DNA of 64,000 nt from Lacibacter sp. H407 (GTDB taxonomy: Bacteria > Bacteroidota > Bacteroidia > Chitinophagales > Chitinophagaceae): NCBI RefSeq assembly GCF_037892605.1, contig NZ_JBBKTU010000001.1, positions 992,001 through 1,056,000 of the forward strand, written 5' to 3'. The notes below the pieces were generated by a model that saw only the letters and a list, made by a program, of their open reading frames with translations, had not been told where the DNA came from and searched no databases. Shown piece by piece: positions 23,224 through 31,983 of this stretch; positions within the stretch are counted from its first letter, which is position 1; every line of letters begins with the position of its first letter. The position numbers were made by a program, and so were the translations under genes.

Positions 23224-24906
23224 ATGCCGGATAATTATGAGTTTGATGCCATTGTAATTGGCTCAGGAATCAGCGGAGGTTGGGCCGCTAAAGAATTGAC
23301 CGAAAAAGGTTTGAAAACGATCATGCTGGAGCGTGGCCGGAATATTGAACACATCAAAGATTATGTGAACGCTACAAAAGAGCCGTGGGATCTTCCACAT
23401 CGTGGCAACCGAACGCAGCAGATGATCAAAGATTATCCTGTGTTGAAGCGTGATTACCCACTCAATGAAATGGTGCTGGATTATTGGGTGAAGGATAAAG
23501 AGTGCCCCTACGTTGAAGAGAAACGGTTCGATTGGTTTCGTGGATATCATGTAGGTGGCCGTTCCATTATGTGGGGCCGCCAGAGTTACCGTTTCAATAA
23601 ATGGGATTTCGAAGCCAATGCAAAAGAAGGCATTGCTGTTGACTGGCCTATCCGTTACGATGACGTAGCACCCTGGTACAGCTATGCAGAACGTTTTGCT
23701 GGTATTCAGGGAAGCAAAGATGGTCTGGAAGTATTGCCCGATGGTGATTTTATGCCGGCCATGGAATTGAACTGTGTAGAAAAAGATGTAAAGAAGCGAC
23801 TTACAGAACATTATAAAGGCATGCGCCATTTGGTGATTGGCCGCAGTGCAAATATTACGCAGCCACATCATAACCGCACCAATTGCCAGTACCGTGACCG
23901 TTGCTGGAGAGGTTGTCCGTTTGGTGCTTACTTCAGCACACAATCGGCTACATTACCTGCGGCAATGGCAACAGGCAACCTTACGTTGCGTCCGTTCTCC
24001 ATTGTTACAAAAATTGTGTACAATAAGGATACAAAAAAAGCAACCGGTGTTGAAATACTGGATGCAGAAACAAATCAAACCTATGTGTACAAAGCGAAGA
24101 TCGTTTTCGTTTGTGCATCAGCGTTAAACTCTGCATGGGTATTGATGAACTCAGCAACCGATGTGTGGGAAGGCGGCTTGGGCAGCAGCAGTGGCGAGTT
24201 AGGTCATAATGTAATGGATCATCATTTTCGTGCAGGTGCCAACGGTGCTGTAGAAGGCTTTAGCGATAAGTATGAGTACGGACGGAGACCAACAGGTATT
24301 TACATTCCACGCTTCCGCAACATTTATGATGATAAGCGTGATTACCTGCGTGGCTTTGGTTACCAGGGAGGTGCAGGCCGTGGAAGAGGAATTGATGTGG
24401 CTGAGTTAACGATCGGTGCCGGCTTGAAAGAAGCATTAAGTGTACCAAGTGAAAACTGGAATATGGGTATTACCGGTTTTGGTGAAATGCTCCCTTACCA
24501 TGAGAATAAGATCACACTGGATAAAGATGTAAAAGATAAATGGGGATTGCCGGTATTGAAGTTTGATGTAGAAATTAAAGAGAATGAAAAGAAGATGCGG
24601 GTGGATATGATGAACGATGCGAAGGAAATGCTGGAAGCAGCAGGTGTAAAGAATGTACAAACCTACGATGCAGGATATGCACCGGGCATGGGTATTCATG
24701 AAATGGGTACTGCACGTATGGGTCGTGATCCAAAAACATCGGTATTGAATGGTAACAACCAGATCTGGGATGCAAAAAATGTGTTTGTAACCGATGGTGC
24801 ATGCATGACTTCGGCATCATGTGTAAATCCTTCGTTAACGTATATGGCGCTAACAGCACGTGCTGCTGATTTTGCTGTAAAAGAATTAAAGAAAGGAAAT
24901 CTGTAA
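23224..24906 (+). CDS. GMC-family FAD dehydrogenase (tandem copy 1)
   Basis: 560 residues without a signal peptide. FAD motif GSGISG at 13-18 and LERGRN after the second strand. Cysteine loop C221-x5-C227-x3-C231 (NCQYRDRCWRGCPFG), a candidate iron-sulfur ligand set as in FAD glucose dehydrogenases. C-terminal GMC motif HEMGTARMGRDP with His492, and Asn535 in VNPSLTY. The paralogue 21 bases downstream and the Tat-bearing subunit-3 gene after it suggest one or two heteromeric dehydrogenases that reach the periplasm by co-export. Probable role: FAD-dependent oxidation of glycoside hydroxyls. No cytochrome gene lies in this operon, so electrons may go to the cytochrome of the divergent operon. 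Confidence 0.87.
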   Translation: MPDNYEFDAIVIGSGISGGWAAKELTEKGLKTIMLERGRNIEHIKDYVNATKEPWDLPHRGNRTQQMIKDYPVLKRDYPLNEMVLDYWVKDKECPYVEEKRFDWFRGYHVGGRSIMWGRQSYRFNKWDFEANAKEGIAVDWPIRYDDVAPWYSYAERFAGIQGSKDGLEVLPDGDFMPAMELNCVEKDVKKRLTEHYKGMRHLVIGRSANITQPHHNRTNCQYRDRCWRGCPFGAYFSTQSATLPAAMATGNLTLRPFSIVTKIVYNKDTKKATGVEILDAETNQTYVYKAKIVFVCASALNSAWVLMNSATDVWEGGLGSSSGELGHNVMDHHFRAGANGAVEGFSDKYEYGRRPTGIYIPRFRNIYDDKRDYLRGFGYQGGAGRGRGIDVAELTIGAGLKEALSVPSENWNMGITGFGEMLPYHENKITLDKDVKDKWGLPVLKFDVEIKENEKKMRVDMMNDAKEMLEAAGVKNVQTYDAGYAPGMGIHEMGTARMGRDPKTSVLNGNNQIWDAKNVFVTDGACMTSASCVNPSLTYMALTARAADFAVKELKKGNL

Positions 24907-24927
24907 TCAACAAGTAAGCATTACCTC

Positions 24928-26613
24928 ATGGCAGAAAATACATTCGATGCAATTGTAATTGGCTCGGGGATCAGCGGTGGCTGGGCAGCAAAAGAACTTT
25001 GTGAAAAAGGTTTGAAGGTGCTGATGCTGGAACGTGGTGCCGAGCACAAGCACATTGAAGATTACAAAACTGCCAACAAAATGCCTTGGGAATTTGAACA
25101 CCGTGGTAAAACAACCCAACAACAAAAGGAAGATTATCCGGTGGTGCATCGTGGATGGGCAGCCAATGAGCGGGTAATGGATGCGTGGGCGAATGAAAAA
25201 GATTCACCCTATACAGAAGTTAAACCGTTTACGTGGTGGCGCAGTTACCGCATGGGTGGCCGTTCTGTTTTATGGGGCCGGCACAGTTACCGCTGGAGTG
25301 AATTGGATTTTGAAGCCAATGCAAAAGATGGGTTTGGTGTTGATTGGCCCATCCGTTATAAAGACATTGCTCCCTGGTACGATCATGTTGAACGGTTTGC
25401 AGGCATCAGCGGATCACTCGAAAGCTTGCCTTATTTACCCGATGGACAATTTCTTCCCCCTGTTCCATTGAATATTGTAGAGAAAGATGTAGCTGCAAAA
25501 CTCAAACAGTTTTATAAAGGTCAACGACATTTGATCAACAGTCGTGTTGCCAATATTACCGTACCGCACAATGAACGCACTAATTGCCAGTTTCGAAACC
25601 GTTGCTGGGAAGGTTGTCCGTTCGGTGGTTATTTCAGTACGCAATCTTCTACGTTGCCTGCTGCAATGAAAACGAATAATCTTACAGTTAGGCCATTATC
25701 GTACGCAACAAAAATTCTTTATAACAAAGACACAAAAAAAGCAACCGGTGTTGAAGTGCTCGATACAATGGATAACAAAACGTATGAGTACAAAGCAAAA
25801 ATTGTTTTCGTTTGTGCGTCGGCGTTAAACTCAACTTGGTTACTGTTCAATTCAGCAACAGATATATGGCCTGGTGGGTTAGGAAGCAGCAGCGGTGAGC
25901 TAGGTCATAACGTGATGGATCATCATTACAACCTCGGAGCTTCCGGTGATATAGATGGGTATGAAAACCTTACAGAATATGGTCGCCGTCCGGCAGGTTT
26001 TTATATCAGTCGATTTGCAAATATTCCCGGCGATAACAAGCAACGGAATTTTGTGAGAGGTTATGGTTACCAGGGTAGTGCCAGCCGGCAGGGATGGAGC
26101 AGAACAATTGCTGAAATGAATATCGGTGCCTCACTAAAAGAAGCGTTGAGCGAACCCGGTGGCTGGAGACTTGGTGCAACAGGTTTTGGTGAAGTGCTTC
26201 CCTATCATGAAAATAAAATTTCATTGGACAAAACTGTAAAAGATAAATGGGGGTTACCGGTTCTTTCCATGGATGCTGAAATGAAAGAGAATGAATTGAA
26301 CATGCGCAAGGATATTAAAGATGAAATGGTGGCTATGCTGGAAGCCGTGGGTGTAAAAAATATTACAACCTACGATTCCGGACATGCATTGGGGCATGGC
26401 ATTCATGAAATGGGAACTGCCCGTATGGGGCGTGATCCAAAGACATCGGTACTGAATGGTAACAATCAGGTATGGGATGCAACAAATGTGTTTGTTACAG
26501 ATGGTGCATGTATGACCAGTTCATCGTGTGTAAACCCATCGTTAACATATATGGCATTAACTGCAAGGGCCGCAGCATTTGCCGTAAGCGAATTGAAAAA
26601 AGGAAATCTTTAA
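24928..26613 (+). CDS. GMC-family FAD dehydrogenase (tandem copy 2)
   Basis: 561 residues, closely parallel to the preceding gene over its whole length, so a tandem duplication is clear. FAD motif GSGISGGWAAKELCEKGL, cysteine loop C220-x5-C226-x3-C230 (NCQFRNRCWEGCPFG), catalytic region GHGIHEMGTARMGRDP and VNPSLTYMAL. Differences from copy 1 cluster in surface segments such as the region after the FAD motif (AEHKHIEDYKTANKMPW) and GDIDGYENLTEYGRRPAG, which suggests divergent substrate choice. No signal peptide. It precedes the subunit-3 gene by 21 bases. Both copies end in the same ELKKGNL tail as the GMC protein of the opposite operon. Confidence 0.87.
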   Translation: MAENTFDAIVIGSGISGGWAAKELCEKGLKVLMLERGAEHKHIEDYKTANKMPWEFEHRGKTTQQQKEDYPVVHRGWAANERVMDAWANEKDSPYTEVKPFTWWRSYRMGGRSVLWGRHSYRWSELDFEANAKDGFGVDWPIRYKDIAPWYDHVERFAGISGSLESLPYLPDGQFLPPVPLNIVEKDVAAKLKQFYKGQRHLINSRVANITVPHNERTNCQFRNRCWEGCPFGGYFSTQSSTLPAAMKTNNLTVRPLSYATKILYNKDTKKATGVEVLDTMDNKTYEYKAKIVFVCASALNSTWLLFNSATDIWPGGLGSSSGELGHNVMDHHYNLGASGDIDGYENLTEYGRRPAGFYISRFANIPGDNKQRNFVRGYGYQGSASRQGWSRTIAEMNIGASLKEALSEPGGWRLGATGFGEVLPYHENKISLDKTVKDKWGLPVLSMDAEMKENELNMRKDIKDEMVAMLEAVGVKNITTYDSGHALGHGIHEMGTARMGRDPKTSVLNGNNQVWDATNVFVTDGACMTSSSCVNPSLTYMALTARAAAFAVSELKKGNL

Positions 26614-26634
26614 GCAACTTATAAATCAACAATT

Positions 26635-27273
26635 ATGGATCGCAGAGAGCTTTTAAAAAACATAGCACTCCTTACTGGTGCTGCAGTTATTGGTGGTGAA
26701 CTGTTTTTGAGCGGTTGCAAAACCGGACCAAAAGCAGCAGCAGAATTTTCGCCCACTACTATTTCACTGTTAGATGAAATTGGTGAAACCATCATTCCGG
26801 CTACCACAACTCCCGGTGCGAAAGCGGCACAGATCGGTGAGTTTATGAAAGTAATGGTAACCGATTGTTATACACAACGCCAGCAGGATGCATTTATGAG
26901 CGGCATCAACCAAGTAGATGAAGCTTGCAAAAAAATGCACAGCAAATCGTTCATGGAATGTACGCCTGAGCAACGCCACGCTTTATTGGTAAGTCTTGAA
27001 AAAGAAGCCAAAGAATTCAATCAAAAGCGGAACGAAACCGATAAGCCGCTGCGTGAAGAACATAAAAAGAAGAATGACGCATTGCCCTGGAAGGATCAAA
27101 CAGAATTTGAAGGATCACCGAGTCATTATTATACCATGATGAAGCAATTAACATTAACAGGCTTCTTTACTTCCAAAACAGGTATGACGGAAACATTACG
27201 TCATGTTCCTGTGCCGGGTAAATTTGATGGTGAGTTTCCTTATGCGAAGGGTGATAAAGCATGGGCGGAGTAA
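26635..27273 (+). CDS. gluconate 2-dehydrogenase subunit 3 family protein, Tat lipoprotein
   Basis: 212 residues. The N-terminus MDRRELLKNIALLTGAAVIG has the twin-arginine pattern and is followed by a lipobox-like LFLSGC. The domain (LDEIGETIIPATTTPGAKAA, FMKVMVTDCYTQ, YYTMMKQLTLTGFFTSKTG) is that of the small subunit of FAD dehydrogenases. It should carry the upstream GMC subunit(s) through the Tat pathway and anchor the complex. It contains a charged linker (KEFNQKRNETDKPLREEHKKK) not seen in the counterpart at 16584. Spacing of 21 bases from the second GMC gene supports cotranscription. Confidence 0.85.
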   Translation: MDRRELLKNIALLTGAAVIGGELFLSGCKTGPKAAAEFSPTTISLLDEIGETIIPATTTPGAKAAQIGEFMKVMVTDCYTQRQQDAFMSGINQVDEACKKMHSKSFMECTPEQRHALLVSLEKEAKEFNQKRNETDKPLREEHKKKNDALPWKDQTEFEGSPSHYYTMMKQLTLTGFFTSKTGMTETLRHVPVPGKFDGEFPYAKGDKAWAE

Positions 27274-28299: not shown

Positions 28300-28362
28300 A
28301 TTGCGGTCTGATTCGTGAAAATTCGTACCCACCGTGGTTTCAATTTTAGTTACATTCAACCT

Positions 28363-28788
28363 ATGAAACAACTACTTCTACTTCCCCTGCTGCTGTTTGC
28401 ATTGACAGTGTTTGCACAAAAAACCGATGAGCAACAAATACATTCCATACTTGAAGCACAAACCAAACATTGGAACAATGGCGATCTGGAACAATTCATG
28501 AAAGGCTACTGGAACAACGATTCATTGATGTTCATTGGTAAAAGCGGTATTACGTATGGCTACAAGAATACACTGGAAAATTATAAGAAAGGCTATCCAA
28601 GCAAGGATGCAATGGGCACACTCACGTTTCCATTCTTTCAGCTAAAACGTATTTCTGCAGATGCGTATTTTGTGATCGGGCAATGGCACTTGGCAAGACC
28701 CAAAGAAGGAGATGTTGGCGGACATTATACCTTGCTGTTCCGAAAAATAAACGGGGAATGGGTAATTGTGGCCGACCACAGCAGTTAG
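28363..28788 (+). CDS. secreted NTF2/DUF4440-like protein
   Basis: 141 residues from the ATG at 28363; the frame is open upstream to 28315 but that would put 16 residues before a clean signal peptide (MKQLLLLPLLLFALTVFA-Q). The mature part starts with QQIHSILEAQTKHWNNGDLEQ and continues with a small alpha+beta cone fold (DSLMFIGKSG, ADAYFVIGQWHLAR, GHYTLLFRKINGEWVIVAD), the pattern of SnoaL/DUF4440 proteins. Some of these are enzymes, others only bind small molecules; no catalytic residue can be named here. It lies 51 bases before the SPFH gene and has no clear functional link to it. Confidence 0.8.
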   Translation: MKQLLLLPLLLFALTVFAQKTDEQQIHSILEAQTKHWNNGDLEQFMKGYWNNDSLMFIGKSGITYGYKNTLENYKKGYPSKDAMGTLTFPFFQLKRISADAYFVIGQWHLARPKEGDVGGHYTLLFRKINGEWVIVADHSS

Positions 28789-28839: not shown

Positions 28840-29745
28840 ATGTTTCTCATCATTCTCGGAATCATCATTGTTGTTGTTGGTTTCTCTGTTGCAAAAGCCG
28901 ACAGCCCCGTTCAGCGATATGGTAAATTGATCCGTTCGCTTGGTTTTGTAGTGATTGTAATCGGAATGCTTACTGCCTGCGTTGTACAGATCGATGCTGG
29001 CCAGGTTGGCGTACAAAAACTGTTTGGTAAAGTACAGAACCGAACACTTCAGAGTGGGCTAAATGTCGTAAATCCGTTGGTAGAAGTTGTGAAAATGGAT
29101 ATCAAAACATTGAATTATACCATGAGTGGTATGCACGATGAAGGAACTGCTCGCAGCGACGATGCCATTCGTGTTCTAACTGCCGATGGATTGGAAGTAA
29201 CCATCGATCTTTCGGTTTTGTATCGTGTAATTCCTGCTGAAGCACCACGATTAATTGCCGAAACAGGTGAAGATTATGAAGATAAAATTGTTCGTCCGCT
29301 TACAAGAACACGTATTCGTGACAACGCTGTTTATTACGATGCCATTGCACTTTACTCAACCAAGCGGGACGAATTTCAACTACGCATTTTCAAAACCATT
29401 GAAGATGATTTTAAGAAACGTGGTTTATTTCTGGAGAATCTGCTTGTACGAAACATTACTTTACCTGCCAGTGTAAAAGCAACCATAGAACAAAAGATCA
29501 ATGCCGAACAGGATGCACAGAAAATGCAGTTTGTATTACAGAAAGAAAAACAGGAAGCTGAACGGAAACGTGTAGAAGCGCAAGGTATTGCTGATTACCA
29601 ACGCATCATCAGCGAAAGTTTAACCGACCGGCAATTGCAATATGAAAGTATTAAAGCTCAACTGGAATTAAGTAAATCACAAAACGCCAAGATCATTATT
29701 ATGGGCAAAGGAAATACACCGGTTATATTGAATGCGGATAAGTAA
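28840..29745 (+). CDS. SPFH/band-7 (prohibitin-like) membrane protein
   Basis: 301 residues. Two hydrophobic segments (residues 1-18 and 34-50) are followed by the SPFH domain (QVGVQKLFGKVQNRTLQSG, GLEVTIDLSVLYRVI, VRPLTRTRIRDNAVYYDAIA). From about 220 comes a charged helical, probably coiled-coil region rich in Gln, Lys and Glu (KMQFVLQKEKQEAERKRVEA), and then a short tail IIIMGKGNTPVIL. Such proteins form large ring or cage assemblies in membranes and often regulate membrane proteases. Its last 110 codons are repeated almost exactly at 31423-31752, with an AT-rich gene in between. The 3' end of the present gene may therefore have been renewed during an insertion. The protein itself appears intact. 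Confidence 0.88.
   Translation: MFLIILGIIIVVVGFSVAKADSPVQRYGKLIRSLGFVVIVIGMLTACVVQIDAGQVGVQKLFGKVQNRTLQSGLNVVNPLVEVVKMDIKTLNYTMSGMHDEGTARSDDAIRVLTADGLEVTIDLSVLYRVIPAEAPRLIAETGEDYEDKIVRPLTRTRIRDNAVYYDAIALYSTKRDEFQLRIFKTIEDDFKKRGLFLENLLVRNITLPASVKATIEQKINAEQDAQKMQFVLQKEKQEAERKRVEAQGIADYQRIISESLTDRQLQYESIKAQLELSKSQNAKIIIMGKGNTPVILNADK
29416..29745 (+). repeat. 330-base direct repeat, upstream copy (3' end of SPFH gene)
   Basis: Codons AAA CGT GGT to the TAA stop. It aligns without gaps to 31423-31752 with 13 base differences, every one synonymous; by my hand count that is about 96 percent identity. The homology ends at the stop codon on one side and fades before the AAA codon on the other. Confidence 0.95.
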
Positions 29746-29877
29746 AGGCCTCTTAGGAATTTTTCATCAATTTATTCAATATATCATTTAGTTTTCATAT
29801 AAGAATAGGACACCTAAGTAAACATTAATATACCTTAAGGAGAAGTTTATAAATGACCGGGAAAACTTCTATTAAAA

Positions 29878-31374
29878 ATGATACAAATCAACAAAATAAG
29901 GCTCAAAGAGTCTCCTTTCCATATTTTTCTTGTTCCTGTATTTTTTATTCTGAGTAAATATGTGCAATATCAAGGTCTATCGGGTACTGAAGTAGCAATA
30001 GTTGTTGGCTTACAACTTACTTTAGCAATAGTTTTTTCTTGGGGCCTACTTTATCTTGTCACCCGGAATGCCACAAAATCAGCGCTAATAATTTCTTTTT
30101 GTGCCCTATTGTTTCTTTTTTTTGGAGACATTCGTGTGTACTTAAAGGACTCCTTGATTCTAAACCTTTTCTCCAAATACAAATTTCTATTGCCAACATT
30201 AATATTTATCTTCTTTCTTTTTCTAAAGGCAATTAAGTCCGATAAAATGACAAGGCGTACTAATATTTTTTTCAGCTTCTTGTTGCTTGTTTTTACCAGT
30301 ATTGAAATAATAAAGGTCTTTCAATTAAGGTATCAGTTGAAACTAGAAAACCCCGCTACTGAACTCAAGTTTCATGACACCATAAAACAAGATCTTCCAG
30401 ATATATATTTCTTGGTGCCAGATTGTTATCCTTCATCGTCCTACCAAAAAGAAATTCTTGAAGTTGACAACAATTCTTTTGATGATTCACTTAGAAACTT
30501 AGGCTTTCTGGTTCTTAATCAAAGTAAAAGCAACTATAATCGGACAGCCTTTTCAATGTTATCAACATTTAACATGTCATACCCGAAGATCGCCGATACC
30601 TCTCGGGCTTCTGGCCCAAGAGAATATATGCTCGCACTTAAACAAATTAGCAAAGCACGATTATTACAATATTTAAAAAAAGCAAACTACGAGTTTATCA
30701 ACTTATCAATTTTTGATCTTGCGGATACAAAGGCATTACGAAAGCAAAAGTTTTTAAGTACTACGCCAAGAGAAATGTTTCTTAGCCATACATTCTGGAA
30801 TTATTTCAGTCGTGATATTTACTATGCCTGGTTTTTTAAAAAGGCAAACTATAAACAAAACTTGAATAGGCAAACCAATGAATCGTTAAAACAATACAAC
30901 CACAAAATTATTGATACACTTCTACATAATAATTTTTCGAGTAACAAGCACCCTGTTTTTACATATGCCCATTTAAACTTACCACACTTCCCCTACTTTT
31001 ATGACGAAAATGGAAAAGCCTATCCACCAGACAGTATCTATAACGAAGATATGATAGTTAACAAAAAAAGATTTGCAGGTTATATTAGATATACAAACAA
31101 GCAATTGTTACAAATAATCAATTCAATTAAAAGTAAGACAAATAATGAAGCTGTAATTATTTTGCAAAGTGATCATGGCTTATCTGATATAAATACCTCC
31201 AGAAAGCTTGATGCATTTCGAAATTATTCTGCTTTTTATTTCCCAGATGGAGATTATTCAATGCTATATGATAGCATGAGTAATGTAAATAGTTTCAGGA
31301 TTATAATTAATAAATATATGAATCAATCGCTCCCTTTGATTCCCGACCAAACATTTTACATTGGCATACGATGA
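29878..31374 (+). CDS. membrane-anchored sulfatase/phosphatase-fold protein (alkaline-phosphatase superfamily)
   Basis: 498 residues. About five membrane helices occupy residues 15-150 (FHIFLVPVFFILSKYV, EVAIVVGLQLTLAIVFSWGL, SALIISFCALLFLFFGDI and more). A periplasmic domain follows that starts with PDIYFLVPDCYPSSSYQ, has the family's candidate nucleophile region SNYNRTAFSMLSTFNMSY, AHLNLPHFPYFYDENG and the metal motif LQSDHGL. Proteins of this shape occur in surface-polysaccharide clusters and transfer or remove phosphate-type groups; the substrate here is unknown. The gene is much more AT-rich than its surroundings and lies exactly between two copies of the SPFH gene end, so it looks like a horizontally acquired cargo gene. 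Confidence 0.75.
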   Translation: MIQINKIRLKESPFHIFLVPVFFILSKYVQYQGLSGTEVAIVVGLQLTLAIVFSWGLLYLVTRNATKSALIISFCALLFLFFGDIRVYLKDSLILNLFSKYKFLLPTLIFIFFLFLKAIKSDKMTRRTNIFFSFLLLVFTSIEIIKVFQLRYQLKLENPATELKFHDTIKQDLPDIYFLVPDCYPSSSYQKEILEVDNNSFDDSLRNLGFLVLNQSKSNYNRTAFSMLSTFNMSYPKIADTSRASGPREYMLALKQISKARLLQYLKKANYEFINLSIFDLADTKALRKQKFLSTTPREMFLSHTFWNYFSRDIYYAWFFKKANYKQNLNRQTNESLKQYNHKIIDTLLHNNFSSNKHPVFTYAHLNLPHFPYFYDENGKAYPPDSIYNEDMIVNKKRFAGYIRYTNKQLLQIINSIKSKTNNEAVIILQSDHGLSDINTSRKLDAFRNYSAFYFPDGDYSMLYDSMSNVNSFRIIINKYMNQSLPLIPDQTFYIGIR

Positions 31375-31422
31375 AGTACTTAAATATAAATTACTATCCT
31401 TTAAAATTTTATTGATTCTGAA

Positions 31423-31752
31423 AAACGTGGTTTGTTTCTGGAGAATCTGCTTGTACGAAACATCACTTTACCGGCGAGCGTAAAAGCAACCATTGAACAA
31501 AAGATCAATGCCGAACAGGACGCACAGAAAATGCAGTTTGTATTGCAGAAAGAAAAACAGGAAGCTGAACGGAAGCGTGTAGAAGCGCAAGGTATTGCTG
31601 ATTACCAACGCATCATCAGCGAAAGTTTAACCGACCGGCAGTTGCAATATGAAAGTATTAAAGCCCAATTGGAATTAAGTAAATCACAAAACGCCAAGAT
31701 TATTATTATGGGCAAAGGAAATACACCGGTTATATTGAATGCGGATAAGTAA
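31423..31752 (+). pseudogene. 3' fragment of the SPFH gene (downstream repeat copy)
   Basis: Encodes the same C-terminal 109 residues as the SPFH protein (KRGLFLENLLVRNITLPASV onward) with 100 percent amino-acid identity but 13 synonymous base changes. It lacks the membrane and SPFH parts, and only a TTG at 31432 could start it, so it is not expected to be functional by itself. It ends 3 bases before the convergent gene at 31756, as an original SPFH 3' end would. This copy is therefore probably the displaced native end, and the upstream copy arrived with the AT-rich insert; that direction is inference. Confidence 0.85.
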
Positions 31753-31755
31753 ACA

Positions 31756-31983
31756 TTACAACTTCCCTTTCCACAACCGATAATAGAAATAGATCAACCC
31801 GGAAAGCGAAGCAAGAAAAACAATGTAATAAATAATATTACCAAGGCGGGGTGTTCCTTGAAAGAAGCCCCAGTTGAGATACAAACCAAAAGTCATGTGG
31901 AGCAGCATAAACAAAATACCCACCGAAACCGTTTGAACGATCCGTTTTAAAAACTCCTGGGCTTCCGGTTCCATACCACTCAT
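31756..31983 (-). CDS. small hypothetical membrane protein
   Basis: 75 residues with two hydrophobic helices (VSVGILFMLLHMTFGLYL and LGNIIYYIVFLASLSGLIYF), a polar acidic N-terminus (MSGMEPEAQEFLKRIVQ) and a basic end (RLWKGKL). No enzymatic motif. Proteins of this shape are common in Bacteroidota genomes with no known role. It converges on the SPFH fragment, with only three bases between the stop codons. No obvious partner gene. Confidence 0.7.
   Translation of the reverse strand: MSGMEPEAQEFLKRIVQTVSVGILFMLLHMTFGLYLNWGFFQGTPRLGNIIYYIVFLASLSGLIYFYYRLWKGKL

What the first reader, a model, noticed from the sequence alone, without database searches (positions are those of the whole stretch)
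29416..31752. SPFH gene 3' end duplicated around an AT-rich membrane-enzyme gene
The last 330 bases of the SPFH gene recur at 31423-31752, with an AT-rich sulfatase-fold gene in between. By hand alignment there are no gaps and 13 base differences, all synonymous. The downstream fragment is therefore not a freely decaying copy: both sequences were under coding selection until recently. The simplest reading is that a foreign segment carrying an allelic SPFH 3' end plus cargo recombined into the gene. It rebuilt an intact SPFH protein and left the displaced native end next to the convergent gene at 31756. Integration that restores the 3' end of a protein gene and tolerates different cargo could be a general way to exchange surface-modification genes.
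Basis: partly seen in the sequence, partly recalled or inferred. Interest (0 to 1): 0.72.

Follow-up and report, generated by a model that had tools for sequence, protein, structure and literature searches.

The report
Recombination scar behind an SPFH gene
A membrane-enzyme gene sits between an intact gene and a leftover copy of that gene's tail, most likely because DNA from a close relative joined the chromosome by matching sequence at only one end; it is a clear but ordinary trace of gene exchange.

Summary
The copies differ at dS 0.223, dN 0, less than four neighbouring species pairs at dnaE and valS (0.47-1.04), about equal to the lowest two at rpoB. They are alleles of close lineages; the downstream copy is a stump, codon 193 to stop.
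Related genomes show simpler states: two lack cargo, two carry a 42%-identical cargo in the same slot without duplication, four lack this SPFH gene. No second SPFH tail was found in 88 of 120 other loci that reach 2100 nt downstream. It looks like one event, not a system; no integrase or transposase domain appeared in 15 neighbouring proteins.
Best reading: SPFH'-cargo DNA from a near relative entered by homology in the SPFH 3' end, with a non-homologous joint on the other side (homology-facilitated illegitimate recombination, or single crossover of a ~2-kb circle). The reverse direction is not excluded. AT-richness proves nothing: the genome's own cargo paralogues are as AT-rich.

The parts
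28360..28788 (+). DUF4440 gene, left neighbour of the SPFH gene
   Evidence: Pfam PF14534 (scanned from the 28315 start); borders the slot in relatives with and without SPFH
28840..29745 (+). intact SPFH/Band_7 gene, 301 aa
   Evidence: Pfam PF01145 E 3.2e-30; full-length orthologues in 7 of 14 genus genomes, this one included
29416..29745 (+). copy 1 of the duplicated SPFH 3' end (codon 193 to stop)
29746..29877 (.). AT-rich spacer between SPFH and cargo, GC 0.265
   Evidence: no similarity above shuffled to the two G012 spacers
29878..31374 (+). cargo: membrane protein with sulfatase-superfamily domain, 498 aa, four hydrophobic segments within residues 34-150
   Evidence: Pfam Sulfatase PF00884 E 4e-7; hydropathy; conserved columns D182, T223, D432, H433; GC rank
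31375..31422 (.). 48-nt AT-rich spacer ending at the non-homologous joint (GC 0.167)
   Evidence: no similarity above shuffled to the 75-aa gene or to the G012 spacers
31413..31422 (.). imperfect patch (7 of 10 bases) just left of the joint; the exact joint lies somewhere in 31413-31433
31423..31752 (+). copy 2: SPFH stump (no membrane segment, most of Band_7 missing), open to the stop codon; no ATG near its start, a TTG at 31432 is possible
31756..31983 (-). convergent 75-aa membrane protein gene, right border of the slot
   Evidence: match in 14 of 14 genus genomes (for the set and the match); no Pfam family; two hydrophobic segments

Best explanation
A scar of one-sided homologous recombination. 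The resident locus was SPFH followed directly by the convergent 75-aa gene. A DNA piece from a close relative, carrying at least the last third of SPFH plus the membrane-enzyme gene, recombined by homology within the SPFH 3' part; its other end was joined without real homology inside the resident SPFH gene near codon 193. This rebuilt an intact SPFH gene with an incoming 3' end, placed the cargo behind it, and left the resident 3' end as a 330-nt stump beside the convergent gene. The piece may have been linear (homology-facilitated illegitimate recombination) or a roughly 2007-bp circle that integrated by a single crossover; sequence alone cannot tell these apart. Shown: two diverged alleles of one gene end, the stump, the empty site in relatives. 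Inferred: direction, linear or circular form, route of uptake.
For: Copies: 13 synonymous, 0 non-synonymous, no indel, dS 0.223, equidistant from G012/G013. The stump lies 3 nt from the convergent gene's stop, as at a cargo-free site. Cargo-free sites exist in G011 and G002 (28 and 21 bp from match to match), cargo without duplication in G012 and G013. No inverted match longer than 7 nt between the two 60-nt ends of the insert and no integrase or transposase domain in the 15 proteins scanned at 20.8-36.6 kb. The genus looks mosaic: rpoB, dnaE, valS and ileS trees disagree, as do trees of the flanking genes. In G012 against G013 SPFH, cargo, the convergent gene and the SUGISOM gene upstream are closer (dS 0.11-0.15) than dnaE and valS (0.47, 0.81) and somewhat closer than rpoB (0.21), which suggests that this region moves by homologous recombination. 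The anatomy has a laboratory precedent: 56 of 60 selected E. coli clones gave the PCR product diagnostic of a partial duplication of the homologous gene end, 14 sequenced ones measuring 109-950 bp (PMC3240628, one section read).
Against: No same-species strain was available, so neither donor nor unmodified recipient was seen. Direction is not fixed. The four HFIR clones of PMC3240628 had all lost 245-1385 bp of chromosome, so classical HFIR need not give a duplication; the authors assign the duplications to single crossover of a circle. The ComEC- and DprA-type genes found also ring in E. coli and in 10 and 11 of 14 control genomes and so prove nothing about uptake. The G012-G013 yardstick in the same 318 nt is dS 0.187, lower than the 0.223 between the copies, so the two alleles could come from two sister species rather than one.
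Confidence: 0.6

Rival explanations
1. Same kind of event in the opposite direction: the resident already had SPFH-cargo-convergent gene (as G012 and G013 have), and DNA from an empty-site relative (SPFH 3' end plus convergent gene) came in by homology on the right and a non-homologous joint behind the cargo. The stump is then the incoming piece.
For: G012/G013 carry a cargo homologue in this slot and group with the window cargo (SH-aLRT 99 in a quick tree of 47 rows), so a cargo-bearing ancestor is possible; the copies are equidistant from them.
Against: The two cargos are far too different for shared descent in place (path 1.65 against 0.04 between G012 and G013; SPFH 88% aa), and the 48-nt spacer shows no remnant of the convergent gene's end. 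Neither excludes that an unrelated earlier cargo was resident.
Confidence: 0.2
2. An old duplication whose short copy is still used (for example expressed as a C-terminal coiled-coil fragment), so that selection kept both copies synonymous.
For: The stump is open to its stop codon with 0 non-synonymous changes, and a TTG start is possible.
Against: No ATG near its start, upstream stops in frame; the first third of the protein with its membrane segments is missing; not seen in other genomes as far as checked.
Confidence: 0.07
3. Assembly chimera of two co-existing strains, one with and one without cargo.
For: Two alleles of one gene end on one contig is what a strain mixture would offer; no reads are available here.
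Against: The window lies inside a 4.47-Mb contig (for the method, for the length) of a four-contig genome rated 100% complete, 0.02% contaminated; a misjoin would need shared sequence, but left of the tail only 7 of 10 bases are alike.
Confidence: 0.08
4. A dedicated mobile cassette or island that targets the SPFH 3' end and restores it.
For: The slot holds different genes in different species.
Against: No recombinase in the scanned neighbours, no terminal repeats, no tail duplication in G012/G013 or in the other loci that reach far enough; cargo: no match in phages, three weak matches in plasmids.
Confidence: 0.05

Closest known systems
Single-crossover integration of a (re)circularised fragment, E. 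coli lacZ assay (PMC3240628)
   Same: Partial duplication of the homologous gene end (109-950 bp in 14 sequenced clones) beside the inserted DNA; no site-specific recombinase
   Different: Laboratory selection with a conjugated plasmid; here natural, with allelic copies at dS 0.223
Homology-facilitated illegitimate recombination (HFIR)
   Same: One homologous anchor, one joint without homology
   Different: The four HFIR clones in PMC3240628 deleted chromosome (245-1385 bp); here the joint lies inside the anchor and gives a duplication
Displacement of effector genes leaving orphan immunity genes in T6SS clusters (PMC5361080), and Rhs C-terminal displacement cited there
   Same: Incoming module anchored by homology on one side, a resident gene pushed downstream; the authors propose an HFIR-like event
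   Different: There the displaced part is a different immunity gene or gene end kept downstream; here it is a conserved gene end, protein-identical to the new one, and the cargo is not a toxin-immunity pair
Small variable segments / dimorphic loci (PMC2884548)
   Same: Short replaceable segment between conserved genes, for which HFIR is one proposed cause
   Different: Those are comparisons within species; I saw five passages, none of which mentions a gene-end stump
Membrane sulfatase-superfamily transferases (LTA synthase-like)
   Same: Hydrophobic N-terminal part plus Pfam Sulfatase domain; a 27%-identical plasmid match is annotated LTA synthase family protein
   Different: Substrate unknown; the 18 relatives aligned are 26-42% identical; no usable structure model

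Membership tests
Homology-facilitated illegitimate recombination product | One homologous anchor shared by donor and recipient | tested here: met
   330-nt allelic tails, 13 differences; that one is the donor's is inferred
Homology-facilitated illegitimate recombination product | Second joint with no or little homology | tested here: met
   similarity ends at 29406/31413; 7 of 10 bases alike at the edge, 2 of 10 before it
Homology-facilitated illegitimate recombination product | Linear donor taken up and joined | not testable with these tools
   a circle joined by single crossover gives the same sequence
Single-crossover (Campbell) integration | Direct repeat of the homologous part on both sides of the insert | tested here: met
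Single-crossover (Campbell) integration | Circular donor of the unit length (2007 bp) | not testable with these tools
   no donor held
Integrase-borne island or ICE at a gene 3' end | Integrase gene in or beside the insert | tested here: not met
   the insert holds one gene; 15 proteins scanned between 20.8 and 36.6 kb show none, two of them having no Pfam match at all; farther genes were not scanned
Insertion sequence or transposon | Transposase and terminal inverted repeats | tested here: not met
   no transposase domain; longest inverted match of the two 60-nt ends 7 nt
Rhs/T6SS-type displaced cassette | Variable toxin-immunity cargo | tested here: not met
   cargo is Pfam Sulfatase; the second gene end is protein-identical
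Sulfatase superfamily membrane transferase (cargo) | Sulfatase domain above Pfam cut-off | tested here: met
   30.1 bits against 25
Sulfatase superfamily membrane transferase (cargo) | Alkaline-phosphatase-like fold with metal site | tested here: inconclusive
   D182, T223, D432, H433 invariant in 19 sequences, their role is recalled; structure model mean pLDDT 37.8

The most novel reading that the evidence does not exclude
The gap between the SPFH gene and the convergent 75-aa gene is an exchange slot for membrane and surface-modifying enzymes in this genus: ancient, strongly diverged alleles of one cargo subfamily are swapped among species by recombination in the conserved flanks, usually cleanly and occasionally, as here, one-sidedly with a stump left behind.
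Probability: 0.25. Interest if true: 0.5.

Novelty: new member of a known kind. Interest (0 to 1): 0.3.

Why it matters
It is a readable example of how a single gene can be added to a bacterial chromosome without visible mobile-element machinery. Because the stump shows not one amino-acid change, the event is recent compared with the divergence of the two alleles, and the slot gives a small locus on which one-sided and two-sided exchange could be counted across strains.

Tried and rejected
Mobile element: no recombinase in the scanned neighbours, no end repeats, no phage match, three weak plasmid matches. General 3'-end-restoring integration: no second SPFH match in 120 other loci; two very short self-matches (24 and 17 nt) there were taken as chance. 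Reach matters: 119 of 120 loci have 1000 nt downstream, but only 88 reach 2100 nt, where a tail like the window's would lie; the same search does find the window's own tail. The 120 loci hold 109 distinct SPFH sequences and repeat some genomes (for example L033 and L076), so they are not 120 species. The family-wide search at E 1e-60 scored at most five candidates a genome, and the window's tail itself passes only narrowly (8.4e-63), so shorter or more diverged tails would be missed there. Direction of the event from states shared with relatives: mixed. Remnant of the convergent gene in the 48-nt spacer: not above shuffled. Vertical descent of the cargo since the split from G012/G013: rejected by distance. 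Species tree as a frame for gain and loss of SPFH: rpoB, dnaE, valS and ileS conflict, so no count of gains and losses is given. G012 against G013 as a plain species yardstick: weakened, because their slot region is closer than their dnaE and valS. Structure of the cargo: single-sequence model unusable, pLDDT 37.8, so no fold search was made. PDB search by sequence: three weak sulfatase matches to the DHG region. One search read only one strand of unoriented loci and its tree is discarded; one search stopped with an error after its tables, and the remaining trees were run.

Full report
What is there. The SPFH gene (28840-29745, Band_7) is intact. Its last 330 nt recur at 31423-31752 with 13 differences, all synonymous and without gaps. 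Between them lies one gene, 29878-31374, a 498-aa protein with hydrophobic segments in its first third and a Pfam Sulfatase domain. The second tail begins at codon 193, has stops in frame just upstream and no ATG near its start (a TTG at 31432 is listed), and its stop codon lies 3 nt from that of the convergent 75-aa gene.

The copies are alleles. Nei-Gojobori counts give dS 0.223 and dN 0 over 67.3 synonymous and 259.7 other sites; under random change 13 of 13 synonymous has a probability near 1e-9, and 0 of 20000 simulated sets reached it. In 318 nt comparable with relatives, copy 1 differs from G012 and G013 at 47 and 45 places and copy 2 at 47 and 48. For scale, four pairs of neighbouring species in the genus have dS 0.47-1.04 at dnaE, 0.69-1.00 at valS and 0.21-0.37 at rpoB, where two pairs (0.207, 0.218) fall just below the copies; in the tail region itself G012-G013 give 0.187 and G011-G002 0.667. 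The two tails thus come from one species or from two close sister species. By the rule of three (my arithmetic), no change in about 260 sites bounds free decay of the stump at about 1.2%, far below the divergence of the copies, so the joining is recent if the stump is unused.

States of the locus in the genus (14 genomes searched). Full-length SPFH orthologues: 7 of 14. G011 and G002: SPFH then the convergent gene, 28 and 21 bp from match to match. G012 and G013: SPFH, a 42%-identical cargo, convergent gene, no second tail. G008: 413 bp without an ORF of 60 aa or more. G009: SPFH and the convergent gene lie on different contigs, unresolved. G001, G003, G007, G010: this SPFH gene is absent and the DUF4440 gene is next to the convergent gene. 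G004 (800 contigs), G005 and G006 have the convergent gene but no close SPFH orthologue; G006 has a 31% relative elsewhere. In a family-wide search SPFH was found in 133 of 394 genomes; a separate second tail at E 1e-60 or better was listed only in G000, two other partial matches being at contig starts and one covering the front of the protein (its limits are given under Tried and rejected). Among 120 other loci none has a second SPFH match by tblastn; 88 of them reach at least 2100 nt downstream, far enough to show a tail placed like the window's, and the search recovers the window's own.

The slot elsewhere. Of the 120 loci, 35 have a match to the convergent gene, many at 20-45% identity; 15 of these lie within 100 bp of SPFH, 5 at 101-300, 8 at 301-700 and 7 beyond 700 bp, some being the same genome twice. 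The larger gaps hold different genes: the sulfatase-type cargo (G012, G013), a 285-aa outer-membrane-like protein, a 137-139-aa membrane protein, a 190-aa reductase-like protein (the last three names are my reading of the sequences, not database results). So the slot does accept different content, but no tail duplication was seen with it.

The cargo. Among the 47 rows of a quick tree it is the closest relative of the G012/G013 cargo (SH-aLRT 99), yet the path length is 1.65 changes per site against 0.04 between G012 and G013, while the neighbouring SPFH is 88% identical. Vertical descent in place is therefore unlikely, and at least one of the two was brought in. The family is common (120 of 394 family genomes at 1e-10) and often tandem. 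Its low GC (0.323; codon-usage z -1.98) is shared by three tandem paralogues in the same genome (0.313-0.339), so composition does not show a distant origin. Function: a membrane sulfatase-superfamily transferase or hydrolase acting outside the inner membrane is the likely reading; invariant D182, T223, D432, H433 in 19 aligned sequences fit a metal-dependent site, whose roles I recall and did not test. The structure model failed.

Mechanism. One side of the insert is homologous (the SPFH tail), the other is not: left of the stump 7 of 10 bases agree, then 2 of 10. That is the product of one homologous and one non-homologous joint. Two known routes give it: homology-facilitated illegitimate recombination of linear DNA, or single crossover of a circle. 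PMC3240628 (passages, one section) saw mostly the second: of 60 clones 56 gave the PCR product of a partial duplication of the homologous end, 14 sequenced ones 109-950 bp, and four were true HFIR, all with deletions, three without homology at the joint. PMC5361080 (passages) proposes an HFIR-like event for T6SS modules that push the resident gene downstream and notes that it is much rarer than plain homologous exchange; PMC2884548 (passages) invokes it for small variable segments. The same ranking may hold here: G012 and G013 differ at dS 0.11-0.15 over SPFH, cargo, convergent gene and the upstream SUGISOM gene, against 0.47 and 0.81 at dnaE and valS and 0.21 at rpoB, as a clean block exchange would give, while G000 carries the rarer one-sided product. 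ComEC-type and DprA-type genes are present but ring in 10 and 11 of 14 control genomes, E. coli among them.

Limits. No strain of the same species was available, so direction is inferred (about 0.6 for cargo gain, 0.2 for arrival of an empty-site allele). Gene trees across the genus conflict, so gain and loss of SPFH are not ordered. The DUF4440 gene of G000 groups with G001/G010 (support 0.998) although those lack SPFH, another sign of mosaic ancestry that I did not resolve. An assembly chimera cannot be excluded without reads. Literature: the listings showed no report of this SPFH slot; that library lacks most subscription journals.

Noticed in passing
L031/L032 (G012, G013), SUGISOM to convergent gene: Four genes around the slot are closer between these two genomes (dS 0.11-0.15) than their dnaE and valS (0.47, 0.81) and a little closer than rpoB (0.21), suggesting a recent clean exchange of the block.
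   Followed up: partly
G001, G003, G007, G010 (L181-L184): The SPFH gene is missing and the DUF4440 gene abuts the convergent gene; in G007 the two stop codons look adjacent (my reading).
   Followed up: partly
window 28360-28788: The DUF4440 gene groups with G001/G010 (0.998) unlike neighbouring genes: a separate mosaic patch.
   Followed up: partly
L189:6491-11209 (G000:C1 about 2304490-2309208): Three tandem AT-rich paralogues of the cargo; the search counted one TAA inside one of its matches here.
   Followed up: no
L218 (G000:C1:1150001-1170000): Six direct repeat pairs of 141-356 nt at spacings of 561-1925 nt, 81-94% identical.
   Followed up: no
L259 and its genus counterparts (valS-like): This synthetase gene of G000 groups with G002/G011 (support 1.0) against the other markers: probable replacement. 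The name valS is my label for the best PF00133 match.
   Followed up: no
window 23224-27273: Two tandem GMC oxidoreductase genes followed by a gluconate 2-dehydrogenase subunit 3-like gene.
   Followed up: no
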